From: Centipeda flueggei ATCC 43531
GTDB taxonomy: Bacteria; Bacillota; Negativicutes; Selenomonadales; Selenomonadaceae
Length of the DNA: 64,000 nucleotides
Direction of reading: 5' to 3'
NCBI RefSeq assembly: GCF_000160695.1
Contig: NZ_GG694008.1
Location: 26,080-90,079 of the forward strand
This document shows positions 34,856 through 63,131 of the stretch, piece by piece. The notes under the pieces are model-generated. The model was not told where the DNA came from and ran no database searches. It worked only from the letters and a program-made list of their open reading frames with translations. Every line of letters starts with the position of its first letter. Positions within the stretch are counted from its first letter, which is position 1. Made by a program: the position numbers and the translations under genes.

Positions 34856-34887
34856 GGTAACCCTCCTATCTCTCAAGTCTTCTCTAG

Positions 34888-35051
34888 GGAATCACTGATA
34901 AAATGAAGTCCGTCGGATTGGTACAGATGTTTTGTCCTGTCCAGGAGACAAGCTGGACGCACAACAGCAGAGGCCATGTGGAGGATCCTGGGGTACAGGC
35001 AGGACGAAAAAGATGTACAAATACGACTGTGCTGAATTTATCAGTACTTCC
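34888..35051 (-). repeat. dispersed repeat with terminal inverted repeats, copy 1
   Basis: A 164-bp element with ends GGAATCACTGATAAA (left) and TTTATCAGTACTTCC (right), which are near-perfect inverted repeats. Read on the minus strand it aligns end to end with the copy at 62791-62951, and its centre aligns with 37289-37402. The flanks CTAG and TTGG are only loosely alike. It has no ORF with a family match. A small non-autonomous mobile element is the best reading. Confidence 0.75.
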
Positions 35052-35055
35052 TTGG

Positions 35056-35132: not shown

Positions 35133-35933
35133 CTACTCCCGTCCCACGCGGTTGATGGTCGTCAGACCGCGATAAACGGTCCCGATATCGAGATCGTCCC
35201 CGCGCGACTCCATGTATTTTTCCAGTTTCCGTTTGACACGCTGCAGTGCGTTATCGATGGATTTAACCTGACGATGCAGGTCAACGGCAATCTCCTGGTA
35301 GGACTTGCCGTCGAGATAGCTCATTAGAACACGCCACTCAAGATCGCTGAGAATCTCCTCCATCTTCTGCTCGATATCGATGAACTCCTCGTGACTGATG
35401 ACCAGTTCCTCAGGATCGCTGATACGCGCACCGGACAGCACATCGAGCAGCGTGCGGTCAGAGTCCTCATCATAGATTGGCTTGTTCAGTGAGACATAGG
35501 AGTTAAGCGGGATATGCTTCTGCCGTGTCGCCGTCTTGATTGCTGTGATGATCTGGCGTGTCACGCAGAGCTCCGCAAAGGCACGAAAGGACGAAAGTTT
35601 GTCCGGACGATAATCACGGATCGCCTTGAAGAATCCGATCATCCCCTCCTGCACAATGTCCTCGCGGTCTGCCCCGATGAGAAAGTAGGAGCGTGCTTTG
35701 GAGCGCACGAAGTTACGGTACTTGTTGATAAGATAGTCGAGTGCCTCATCGCCGTCACAGCCTCGAATGCGATTCAACAGATCCTCGTCCGAACAACCAT
35801 CGAAGACGCTGCTTTCCACAGCATCGTCTGCGAACGCATCTTTTTCGGTGTCAGATTCTCCCGGATCCAGCTCCTCGGGCACGGCTTGTTCATCATCCAA
35901 CAAGGGCGTCTGCTTATCGCCGTAAAAAATCAT
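35133..35933 (-). CDS. sigH: SigH-like RNA polymerase sigma factor
   Basis: About 266 residues. After an acidic N-terminus come region 2 (about residues 50-120, with DREDIVQEGMIGFFKAIRDY) and region 4 with a C-terminal HTH (SYQEIAVDLHRQVKSIDNAL). This matches sigma-H of spore formers, which sits beside rpmG-secE-nusG; here that block is upstream on the same strand. The start is uncertain: ATG 35933, or GTG 35942 with GGGAG 5 bases upstream. It has its own promoter and terminator. Confidence 0.85.
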   Translation of the reverse strand: MIFYGDKQTPLLDDEQAVPEELDPGESDTEKDAFADDAVESSVFDGCSDEDLLNRIRGCDGDEALDYLINKYRNFVRSKARSYFLIGADREDIVQEGMIGFFKAIRDYRPDKLSSFRAFAELCVTRQIITAIKTATRQKHIPLNSYVSLNKPIYDEDSDRTLLDVLSGARISDPEELVISHEEFIDIEQKMEEILSDLEWRVLMSYLDGKSYQEIAVDLHRQVKSIDNALQRVKRKLEKYMESRGDDLDIGTVYRGLTTINRVGRE

Positions 35934-36013
35934 ACGATGCACCGTCTCTCCCAGAAAATCCCTCGCGAGGCGGACGGTACAGTTCCGCCCCACACTACAA
36001 ATGTCCTAGATTT

Positions 36014-37250: not shown

Positions 37251-37288
37251 GTAATCATTTCCCTCCCTTCTTGTCGCCGTTCATCTTG

Positions 37289-37402
37289 GCACGTCCTTCC
37301 GTTCTCGCTGCGTCGGAACATCCTCCACGCAGGCCTTAACTGCGCGTCTGGTGTTCCTCCTTGCTCGAACAAAAATCCGCACCAATCTGGACGGCTCTTA
37401 TT
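37289..37402 (+). repeat. dispersed repeat, copy 3 (ends decayed)
   Basis: The core from ACATCCTCCACGC through AAAATCCGCACCAATCTGG aligns without gaps, about two thirds identical by eye, to 62791-62951 on the same strand. The terminal inverted repeats are not recognisable. It lies between the attenuator hairpin of the L10 leader and the rplJ ribosome-binding site, so it is part of the rplJ-rplL leader mRNA in antisense orientation. Confidence 0.6.
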
Positions 37403-37411
37403 CTTTTGAAT

Positions 37412-37541
37412 GAAAAATCTCCGGCTGCTATCCTGCCGGAGATGAATGTTCAAATTCACGTCCGGCCTCGGCAGGCGACCATGTCGTTAGATGCTTGCGC
37501 AAACCTGCTGTCTACAGCCCGGGGAAATTCCGTGCGCTGTT
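37412..37541 (-). promoter_or_regulatory. L10 leader (autoregulatory mRNA structure)
   Basis: On the minus strand the segment has GACAGCAGGT and CCTGCCGAGG, the conserved paired parts of the Firmicute L10 leader, followed by the hairpin TCTCCGG/CCGGAGA with T5 at 37413-37442, which serves as terminator. L10 (with L12) is known to bind this structure and stop its own operon. Confidence 0.8.
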
Positions 37542-60655: not shown

Positions 60656-61996
60656 CTAGTCCGTCCGCAGTGTCTTTTCTGTCCAGAAGTAGGCGACAGC
60701 GACGGGAACGGCAGCACCGATCCATGCGAGAGGATTGGCAAGACATGCACCCAAAAATCCAAGATGCGCGCAGAGGAAGATCGCCGCCCCCGCGCGCATC
60801 ATGAGCTCCATCGCCCCCGCGATCGTCGGGACAACGCTCTGCCCGAGCCCCTGCAGGACGTTGCGGTAGACGAGCAGAACGGCGAGGATGATATACGCCG
60901 AGCCATTGACGAGGAGGAAGGTCTGCCCATAGGCAATGACCTCATCCGCGCCCTGTGCATCTGCACCGACAAAAAGTGCCAGCAGATATGTCCCGAAGGC
61001 GATGAGCAGGATACCGATCGCGACGGCAAATGCCACGGACATTTTGAGACATGCATGTACCCCTGCACGAATACGTGCATACTGCTGTGCACCATAATTC
61101 TGCGCCGTATATGCCGCCATCGCATAGCCAAAGGAGAGCATGGGCATGACGGCGACGGCATCAATCTTCTGCGTCGCTGCGTATGCTGCCACGGGAAGTG
61201 CGCCGAGGTTGTTGAGGGCAACTTGGAGGATGATGGCTCCGAGGGCAATAACGGAGGACTGCAGCCCCATCGGCAGCCCCATTCGCAGGTGTGCGGCAAG
61301 AAGTGCAGCGTCGAGTTTCCAGTCCTGCCATGCGGGGCAGAGGGTCGGAATGCGCTGCCGTATGTAGATATAAAAAAGAAGCGCCCCGATCGCCTGTGAA
61401 AGAACAGTCGCACCTGCCGCTCCCGGAATGCCGAGGTCAAGCACAAGAATGGCGATTGGCTCAAGGGCGACATTGACAGCAAGTGTGATCCCCAGAAGAA
61501 TCGTCGGCGTCATGCTGTCTCCAAGGGCACGGACGAGACAGTTTTGCAGATAAAGCAGAAGAAAGATAACCAGTCCCGCAAAGATGATGAATATAAAGTC
61601 CTCTGCCCCATCCAGAATCTCGGGCGGTGTCTCCATGAGAACGAGGAGCGTACGCGTCAAGGGCAGGAGTATCGCGGTCAAAAGAAGCGCCGTCAGGACG
61701 CCGAGCAGGACGCATGCCGCCGCACTGCGGCGTACGCCGTCTGCATCCATCGCACCGAACCGCTGTCCCGTATAAATCGTAATACCTGTGCAGAATCCCA
61801 TAACGAAGCCGAGGGCAAGGAACATGAGACTGCCTGTACAGCCGACGGAGGCAAGTGCATTCACCCCAAGGAATCGCCCAACGATGAGCGTATCGACAAA
61901 GGAATAGAGCTGCTGCATCATATTTCCTGCAATCAGCGGAAGAGCAAAGAAAAAGATCAGCCGTGCGGGGCTGCCCGACGTCAGATTCTTCATCAT
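60656..61996 (-). CDS. MATE-family efflux transporter
   Basis: 446 residues with about twelve hydrophobic helices. The start LTSGSPARLIFFFALPLIAG and IVGRFLGVNALASVG are the NorM/DinF-like signature of the first bundle. It exports cationic compounds in exchange for Na+ or H+; the substrate is unknown. ATG 61996 overlaps the YdcF-like stop (ATGATG), so both are translated together. Confidence 0.92.
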   Translation of the reverse strand: MMKNLTSGSPARLIFFFALPLIAGNMMQQLYSFVDTLIVGRFLGVNALASVGCTGSLMFLALGFVMGFCTGITIYTGQRFGAMDADGVRRSAAACVLLGVLTALLLTAILLPLTRTLLVLMETPPEILDGAEDFIFIIFAGLVIFLLLYLQNCLVRALGDSMTPTILLGITLAVNVALEPIAILVLDLGIPGAAGATVLSQAIGALLFYIYIRQRIPTLCPAWQDWKLDAALLAAHLRMGLPMGLQSSVIALGAIILQVALNNLGALPVAAYAATQKIDAVAVMPMLSFGYAMAAYTAQNYGAQQYARIRAGVHACLKMSVAFAVAIGILLIAFGTYLLALFVGADAQGADEVIAYGQTFLLVNGSAYIILAVLLVYRNVLQGLGQSVVPTIAGAMELMMRAGAAIFLCAHLGFLGACLANPLAWIGAAVPVAVAYFWTEKTLRTD

Positions 61997-62754
61997 TCGA
62001 GATACCTCGTCACAGCGATACGCAGTTTTTCTTGAAGGTATACGGTATTCGTGAGGAGTGCCCCTGCATTCGGCGCAAATTTCAATAGATAGAGCTGCGA
62101 ATCTCCGCTGACCAAAAAGTCTGTTGGGTATGGCGTCACCGTGATGCCCTGTTTCTCAAAGTTGAGCACGGCACGCGGCAGATGGAATGCCGAGGTCACG
62201 AGGATGGGATGCATCAGACCTTCACGGCGCAGAATCTCTGCCGTGTAGTGTGCATTCTGTCCCGTCGTAAGGCTGCGCGTCTCCACACGAATCATCTCGT
62301 CGGGGACACCAAGCGAGCGCAAAACACGACGCGCAATCTCCGCCTCAGACCCTGTATCACTGAACACCTGTCCGCCCGAGAGAAGAATCGGCAGATGTGT
62401 GCGCAGATGGAGACGATACGCCGCCAGGAGACGTGAGGACGGGCTCTGCGCGAGCATCCCCATGCCGTCCACATCCTGCACATCTGCGATTGCTCCGCCG
62501 CCAAGCATGATGATGACATCGCCCTGCGGCACCTCGGGCACGGGATACGTCCGCTCAAGCTCCCCCATCAGGCGATCCGAGACGGCTCCGATGGAGAGGA
62601 GATAGAGCATGGCGGCAAGCGCACAGAGCAGCATAGCCGCACGGGATTGATGCCGCCTCTTCCATAGATAGACAGCAAGCCCAAGCATAGCAAGAACAAA
62701 AATCCCCGGCGGCAGAATCCATGCTGCCCCAAATTTTAAAATGTAAATCATCAT
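61993..62754 (-). CDS. YdcF/ElyC-family membrane protein (DUF218)
   Basis: 253 residues. Two membrane helices (about 7-30 and 40-60) precede a DUF218 domain with DVIIMLGGG, LPILLSGGQ, ETRSLTTGQNA and VTSAFHLPRA. Family members (ElyC, SanA) are linked to envelope integrity. The repeat element at 62791-62951 lies 36 bp upstream of its ATG, so its promoter must be in or beyond that repeat. Confidence 0.88.
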   Translation of the reverse strand: MMIYILKFGAAWILPPGIFVLAMLGLAVYLWKRRHQSRAAMLLCALAAMLYLLSIGAVSDRLMGELERTYPVPEVPQGDVIIMLGGGAIADVQDVDGMGMLAQSPSSRLLAAYRLHLRTHLPILLSGGQVFSDTGSEAEIARRVLRSLGVPDEMIRVETRSLTTGQNAHYTAEILRREGLMHPILVTSAFHLPRAVLNFEKQGITVTPYPTDFLVSGDSQLYLLKFAPNAGALLTNTVYLQEKLRIAVTRYLE

Positions 62755-62790
62755 CTCATACGTCCAATCGCGATTTATTTCGATATGCTA

Positions 62791-62951
62791 GGAAAGCACT
62801 GATAAATTCGGTACAACCATCTTGACGTATCTTTTTTGCCCGCACTTCGGCGGAAAATCCTCCACAGAGCACCACTCTGCGTCCGGTTTTCCACCTCGTT
62901 CGGACGAAAAAATCTACGCCAACCTGGCAGACCTCATTTATCAGTGATTCC
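62791..62951 (+). repeat. dispersed repeat with terminal inverted repeats, copy 2
   Basis: A 161-bp element, the best preserved of three. Ends GGAAAGCACTGATAAA and TTTATCAGTGATTCC are inverted repeats. Internal marks are AATCCTCCACAGAGC and CGTTCGGACGAAAAA. The copy at 34888-35051 aligns on the opposite strand. It lies upstream of the YdcF-like gene. No transposase is encoded. Confidence 0.75.
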
Positions 62952-63131
62952 TTAGAAAAATCAACAACCGCAGCAACTGCAAGGTGTCTCACAAATATAT
63001 AGCGCAACTACGGTGCCCCTATTATAGGATATTTTAGGGGATTTTTGTAGCACGGGAGGCAAATAAATCCGCCGCAATACTGCTATCGATGGAGGCTCTG
63101 AGCACAACGACAAGCGCAAACGTTTTTCCTG
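62952..63131. other. intergenic region after repeat copy 2
   Basis: 180 bp without a credible gene. It holds an A/T-rich stretch with a small inverted repeat (CCCCTATTATAGG...TTTTAGGGG around 63017-63042). A minus-strand frame that runs through the repeat is rejected as coding. Confidence 0.4.

What the first reader, a model, noticed from the sequence alone, without database searches (positions are those of the whole stretch)
62791..62951. A short mobile-like repeat family with terminal inverted repeats
The sequences 62791-62951 and 34888-35051 (reverse) align end to end and share ends of the type GGAATCACTGATAAA / TTTATCAGTGATTCC. Size (about 160 bp), inverted ends and lack of a transposase fit a non-autonomous element (MITE). 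The ends and CTAG-like flanks recall IS5-group elements, but that link is only inference.
Basis: partly seen in the sequence, partly recalled or inferred. Interest (0 to 1): 0.7.

Follow-up and report, generated by a model that had tools for sequence, protein, structure and literature searches.

The report
Mobile RNA-hairpin repeat of Selenomonas
A 160-base non-coding DNA element, about 80 copies of which are scattered through this Selenomonas-type genome, appears to jump with the help of a transposase from a separate IS5-type insertion sequence, and its interior is kept, across several genera, as one long hairpin that folds well from only one of the two DNA strands.

Summary
A covariance model finds 83 places in this genome, and relatives in 20 of 30 genera of the family. 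It is a MITE. Of 203 insertions, 99 have an exact 4-bp duplication (chance 16; consensus YTAR), and empty sites show exactly those 4 bp. Six genomes of the same genus carry a 1.24-kb IS5-family element with the same ends. The host genome has the MITEs but no intact transposase.
It is one hairpin kept by heavy covariation: 32 of 55 pairs have compensatory changes (227 cells against 69 in shuffles). It is kept on one strand only: G·A mispairs outnumber C·T by 1176 to 40, and G·U outnumber A·C. Changes private to single copies are nearly symmetric (115 G·U, 90 A·C). So the structure seems to be kept in the lineages that spread, not in resting copies. There is no bias towards neighbouring genes or the replication strand. 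No Rfam family matches.
It is a new, well-supported family of a known kind (ERIC/NEMIS-like MITE). Its RNA-level function is inferred, not shown.

The parts
62792..62951 (-). full-length element of the finding (160 bp); strand given is the one whose RNA folds best
   Evidence: R1 159.3 bits on -, 48.7 on +; MFE -63.3 on - and -39.8 on +
62788..62791 (.). left copy of the 4-bp target duplication, CTAG
   Evidence: register of 4 bp established
62952..62955 (.). right copy of the 4-bp target duplication, TTAG (one change)
62792..62806 (+). terminal inverted repeat GAAAGCACTGATAAA
62937..62951 (-). terminal inverted repeat GGAATCACTGATAAA
34888..35051 (+). second full-length element (164 bp), target duplication CTAG 34884-34887 / TTGG 35052-35055
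   Evidence: 117.3 bits
37272..37400 (-). third copy of the hairpin, terminal repeats lost, in the rplJ 5' untranslated region between the L10-leader attenuator and the rplJ start

Best explanation
It is a MITE. A transposase of an IS5-group insertion sequence, supplied in trans, recognises the terminal repeats (GGAAnCRCTGATAAA) and inserts the element at YTAR sites with a 4-bp duplication (mobility, duplication and shared ends shown; trans-mobilisation inferred). Between the ends lies no gene. Instead there is a ~130-nt sequence that, copied into RNA from one strand, folds together with the ends into a single long hairpin with three nearly invariant G·A internal loops (GA/GA, GA/GA, GNA/GA). 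Selection keeps that fold in the lineages that spread, while individual resting copies decay almost neutrally (inferred from the substitution pattern). The most likely reading is that the hairpin serves the element's own spread or the tolerability of a fresh insertion. It would do so as RNA when the element is transcribed, for instance by being bound or processed as a closed unit, as proposed for NEMIS and ERIC repeats. That last step is inference; I give it about 0.4 on its own. The confidence below is for the MITE, IS5-type mobilisation and strand-specific structure together.
For: Copy number: 41 blastn matches, 83 model places, 14 of 14 genomes of the genus, 20 of 30 genera. Mobility: exact 4-bp duplication in 99 of 203 insertions against 15.7 in shuffles, 3 bp 10 against 11.3, 5 bp 1. 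Empty sites overlap by exactly 4 bp, e.g. G000 C7:346009 (ctgCCTAA[..]TTAAatacc) against S. felix ctgCCTAAatacc, and a copy inside an IS5 transposase gene of S. massiliensis that is uninterrupted at that site in two other genomes. IS partner: 1235-1247-bp elements with ends GGAATCACTGATAAATAGTG / GGAAACACTGATAAATTCTTAT, matching the MITE end for end, flanked by YTAR-type sites; transposase PF05598+PF01609, NF033581 309 bits against a cut-off of 140; IS5 duplicates YTAR (PMC10359306). Structure: 94.9% of cells paired, 32 of 55 pairs with double changes, 227 cells against 69 shuffled, covariation 0.397 against 0.06-0.12 for slid structures. One strand: MFE -77.8 against -52.6, 120 of 122 copies; G·A 1176 against C·T 40 and G·U 721 against A·C 324 in a strand-neutral register; GA/GA loops in 185 and 188 of 202. 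Spread rather than upkeep: private changes G·U 115, A·C 90, shared 949 and 14.
Against: No transcript was seen. There is no orientation bias to neighbouring genes (28 co-directional, 32 antisense) and none to the replication strand, which an RNA made by read-through would be expected to show. An internal promoter is not conserved (the TGATAAAAT at the left end in the local genus is lost in others). The shared G·U:A·C ratio on the fold's own register is partly circular; in a strand-neutral register the contrast between shared and private G·U is weak (2.1 against 1.5) and only the G·A one is strong (75 against 2.5). The host genome now lacks the transposase, so recent activity there is not shown.
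Confidence: 0.85

Rival explanations
1. An ordinary palindromic MITE: arms kept alike by template switching or hairpin correction at the DNA level, with no RNA function.
For: Long palindromes do correct their arms (general knowledge); mosaic-looking and arm-deleted copies (about 105 and 58 bp) suggest that the arms recombine. Individual copies decay nearly neutrally.
Against: Correction is blind to strand, but G·A exceeds C·T 29-fold and the G·A loops are nearly invariant across genera; the other strand folds 25 kcal/mol worse.
Confidence: 0.12
2. ERIC-like: the hairpin RNA acts on the host's mRNAs (stability or processing) and is kept because some insertions benefit the host.
For: ERIC and NEMIS RNA act on neighbouring transcripts (PMC2229807). 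One copy in the rplJ leader region has lost its ends but kept the hairpin in two species.
Against: No orientation preference to genes; private changes show little pairing constraint in place.
Confidence: 0.25
3. A single-stranded-DNA mover (IS200/IS605 or REP/RAYT type) whose hairpin is read on one strand.
For: Strand-specific hairpin with G·A mispairs.
Against: Inverted terminal repeats and 4-bp duplications at empty sites, IS5-family partner, no leading/lagging bias.
Confidence: 0.03
4. A host structured RNA gene (riboswitch or leader) found at fixed places.
For: Conserved structure; one copy sits beside the L10 leader.
Against: Sites differ between species, with empty sites; no Rfam match; many copies per genome.
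Confidence: 0.02

Closest known systems
ERIC/IRU repeats of enterobacteria (127 bp)
   Same: Short intergenic MITE, whole element folds as one long stem-loop in RNA, duplication of the target, no transposase (PMC2229807)
   Different: Different sequence, length and host phylum; target YTAR with 4 bp, here with an identified IS5-family partner; strand-specific covariation measured here
Correia/NEMIS elements of Neisseria (107/155 bp)
   Same: MITE of similar size with terminal inverted repeats; its transcript is a stem-loop (proposed RNase III substrate, PMC2229807)
   Different: Ends and interior differ; no sequence relation found or tested beyond Rfam
IS5-group insertion sequences (IS5 of E. 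coli type; here a 1.24-kb IS with a 332-aa transposase)
   Same: Ends beginning GGAA, 4-bp YTAR duplication, same termini as the IS in six genomes of the genus
   Different: No transposase; interior unrelated to the IS, only the ends are shared (as described for other MITEs in PMC3852290)
L10 leader (RF00557)
   Same: A copy of this element lies next to it upstream of rplJ in two species
   Different: Separate RNA; the element is downstream of the leader's attenuator and absent there in other species

Membership tests
MITE | short, no transposase or other gene | tested here: met
   160 bp, full-length copies 140-170 bp; no conserved ORF
MITE | terminal inverted repeats | tested here: met
MITE | target-site duplication proven by empty sites | tested here: met
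MITE | high copy number | tested here: met
   83 places in this genome, more than 100 half-sites in several relatives
IS5-group mobilised element | same ends as an autonomous IS5-family element | tested here: met
IS5-group mobilised element | 4-bp duplication of YTAR | tested here: met
   YTAR for IS5 from PMC10359306
IS5-group mobilised element | moved by that transposase in trans | not testable with these tools
   needs a transposition assay
IS5-group mobilised element | autonomous partner in the same genome (usual, not required) | tested here: not met
   no PF01609 match; best transposase-like stretch E 0.014 with stops. Present in six other genomes of the genus
ERIC/NEMIS-type RNA hairpin repeat (works like) | transcribed and acting on neighbouring mRNA | not testable with these tools
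   no expression data
known Rfam family | reaches a curated covariance model | tested here: not met
IS200/IS605 or REP/RAYT ssDNA element | no inverted terminal repeats, no target duplication | tested here: not met

The most novel reading that the evidence does not exclude
A DNA transposon derivative whose spread depends on a strand-specific RNA hairpin: a bacterial counterpart of a SINE in logic (non-coding structured RNA core, machinery borrowed in trans), but moved by a DDE transposase. The apical G·A motif, also found inside a second repeat family with different ends (L121, L182), would be the binding site of a host or transposon protein.
Probability: 0.2. Interest if true: 0.85.

Novelty: new variant of a known kind. 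Interest (0 to 1): 0.5.

Why it matters
The element is a major, apparently undescribed repeat of oral and rumen Selenomonadaceae. Transcribed hairpin MITEs have long been suspected of RNA functions without a way to tell RNA selection from palindrome repair. Here hundreds of copies over many genera separate the two: the G·A and G·U asymmetry points to one strand, and the contrast between shared and private changes points to selection during spread. That makes the question of whether MITE RNA matters, and for whom, directly testable.

Tried and rejected
Host RNA gene at a fixed locus: rejected by empty sites. L10 leader as the source of the interior: rejected, since the leader is a separate, adjacent RNA present in the relatives examined, while the element is beside it in only two. 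Known Rfam family: none. Orientation bias to genes and to the replication strand by GC skew: none. Conserved internal promoter: read from the sequences, TGATAAAAT is not kept outside related genera. Papers on Selenomonas MITEs or structured RNAs: nothing relevant in the held library. Same-ended IS for the more divergent MITE subfamilies (genera g3, g14, g25-g27): similar but not identical ends only. A scan of viral contigs for the inner end motif gave 26 contigs that were not examined further.

Full report
Observation. The stretch 62791-62951 and the stretch 34888-35051 (other strand) do align end to end. The true borders are 62792-62951 (160 bp) and 34888-35051 (164 bp); the bases CTAG/TTAG and CTAG/TTGG around them are the two sides of a 4-bp target duplication. 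In the whole genome (G000, 2.16 Mb, 8 contigs) blastn finds 41 matches. The 10-mer of the ends occurs 71 times against 0 in the reversed control. A covariance model built from 38 diverse copies finds 83 distinct places, 64 of them 140-170 bp long. All 14 genomes of the genus have matches; the model finds the family in 81 of 189 genomes and 20 of 30 genera searched. Named records with it include Selenomonas infelix, S. felix, S. massiliensis, Centipeda periodontii, Mitsuokella sp. oral taxon 131 and rumen Veillonellaceae bins.

It moves. Among 203 distinct insertions, 99 have an exact 4-bp duplication against 15.7 in shuffled flanks; 3-bp and 5-bp duplications are at chance. The site consensus is YTAR. 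All-against-all comparison of flanks gave many filled/empty pairs overlapping by exactly 4 bp. Read out, the G000 copy at C7:346009 is tctgCCTAA[element]TTAAatacc where S. felix has tctgCCTAAatacc; two S. felix copies and one S. massiliensis copy have empty sites in related species; and one copy sits inside an IS5 transposase gene of S. massiliensis that is uninterrupted at that site in two other genomes.

Who moves it. A search for DDE_Tnp_1 in the genus found in G001, G005, G007, G010, G011 and G013 an insertion sequence of 1235-1247 bp where both ends were resolved (one end unresolved in G007). Its two ends, GGAATCACTGATAAATAGTG and GGAAACACTGATAAATTCTTAT (L081, L082; near variants elsewhere), match the left and right ends of the MITE respectively, and its flanks are YTAR-like, one copy with an exact TTAA duplication. 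Its 332-aa transposase has DUF772 and DDE_Tnp_1 and scores 309 bits against NCBIfam NF033581, IS5 family (cut-off 140). IS5 is known to duplicate YTAR (PMC10359306). The host genome itself has no such gene: PF01609 gives nothing, and the transposase finds only a 46-residue stretch at E 0.014 with stops. MITE and IS share only their ends, as is common (PMC3852290). That this transposase moves this element is therefore inferred from ends, duplication and motif.

What the interior is. Folding both strands of the window copy gave -63.3 (minus strand, z -6.2) and -39.8 kcal/mol. Over 122 copies from 29 genomes the favoured strand averages -77.8 and the other -52.6; 120 of 122 go the same way. An alignment of 38 copies from 8 genera, all less than 90% alike, folds into one hairpin with 55 pairs. 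Counting that structure: 94.9% of cells paired, 32 pairs with changes on both sides, 227 such cells against 69 +/- 7 in shuffles, covariation score 0.397 against 0.194 shuffled and 0.06-0.12 when the partner is slid. Helix 1 is the terminal repeats and would pair in any MITE; helices 2 to 5 are the telling part (30 pairs with double changes).

One strand only. To avoid an RNA-biased register I aligned each copy to its own reverse complement with a score that treats all mispairs alike. In the interior there are 1176 G·A against 40 C·T and 721 G·U against 324 A·C. Two symmetric GA/GA loops are present in 185 and 188 of 202 copies, and a GNA/GA loop below the apical stem in about 184. A palindrome kept by DNA repair, or a cruciform, has no reason to prefer one strand this way.

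Where selection acts. For each copy I took differences private to it, judged against its five nearest copies. Starting from Watson-Crick pairs, 115 became G·U and 90 became A·C (p 0.09), whereas shared states on the same pairs are 949 and 14. The shared figure is inflated because the register came from the RNA strand; in the strand-neutral register shared against private is 2.1 and 1.5 for G·U/A·C, and 75 and 2.5 for G·A/C·T. Cells are not independent. With these cautions the pattern says that resting copies decay almost freely while the lineages that give rise to new copies keep the fold.

Context. Copies are mostly intergenic. Relative to the RNA strand, neighbours are co-directional 28, antisense 32, converging 22, diverging 20, with 8 inside an ORF (simple ORF calls), and there is no GC-skew bias (107 of 224). 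In the window, 62792-62951 lies 37 bases upstream of a DUF218 gene (61993-62754, minus), RNA strand in the same direction; 34888-35051 lies between a sigma-factor gene (35133-35993, minus) and a vWA-domain gene (minus; the domain call is weak), antisense to both. A third, TIR-less copy at 37272-37400 lies between the L10-leader attenuator and rplJ; it is shared with S. infelix (G004) and absent from G009 and the other genera examined. This could be an exapted copy.

Interpretation. That it is a MITE is shown. That IS5-group transposases move it is strongly supported. That the interior is selected as a one-strand structure is strongly supported by sequence statistics; that the strand is RNA rather than single-stranded DNA is inference, favoured because ends and duplications exclude the single-strand movers. 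What the hairpin does is open. Without orientation bias to genes, a benefit to host transcripts is not the simplest reading; a role in the element's spread, or in making new insertions tolerable when transcribed, fits the private/shared contrast better. ERIC and NEMIS (PMC2229807) are the nearest in kind.

Novelty. The kind is known; the family appears undescribed in the library searched and in Rfam. The strand-resolved evidence is the new part.

Noticed in passing
window 37272-37400 (-): TIR-less copy of the hairpin in the rplJ 5' untranslated region, shared with S. infelix; a candidate for host use.
   Followed up: partly
L182 3800-4070; L121 902-1031 and 1162-1265: A second hairpin repeat (about 130 bp, one copy with ends GTGACGTG..CACGTCAC) with nearly the same apical G·A motif (about 90% over 34 nt with the MITE), found in the two genomes of the genus that have few MITEs.
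   Followed up: partly
L121 902-1647: In G009 the spacers before tRNA 1, between the two tRNAs, and between tRNA 2 and 23S rRNA each hold one of these hairpins (two of the second family, one MITE relative).
   Followed up: partly
L363 842-930 (-): Hairpin core in another genus, apparently just downstream of rplL with a MITE-like end at its right side; the place is inferred from position only.
   Followed up: partly
G000 C8:58778, 671090, 709256, 801433, 1038379, 1102110; C6:232290: Size classes: seven copies of 56-59 bp and eight of about 100-120 bp, some with intact 4-bp duplications; likely arm deletions, perhaps between the repeated AGAT motifs.
   Followed up: partly
L033, L037, L038, L061: Copies that look mosaic: the same right-arm block beside different left arms, so pairing is broken there; suggests recombination between copies.
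   Followed up: no
window 37403-37535 (-): L10 leader (RF00557) just under Rfam's gathering score (35.8 against 44) in the expected place upstream of rplJ.
   Followed up: yes
G116, G136, G142, G071: Genomes of other genera with only one strong model match each (E 1e-23 to 1e-32); places not retrieved, might be fixed single copies.
   Followed up: no
L395-L420: 26 viral contigs hold the inner end motif CACTGATAAATTCAGC; possible copies in prophages, not examined.
   Followed up: no
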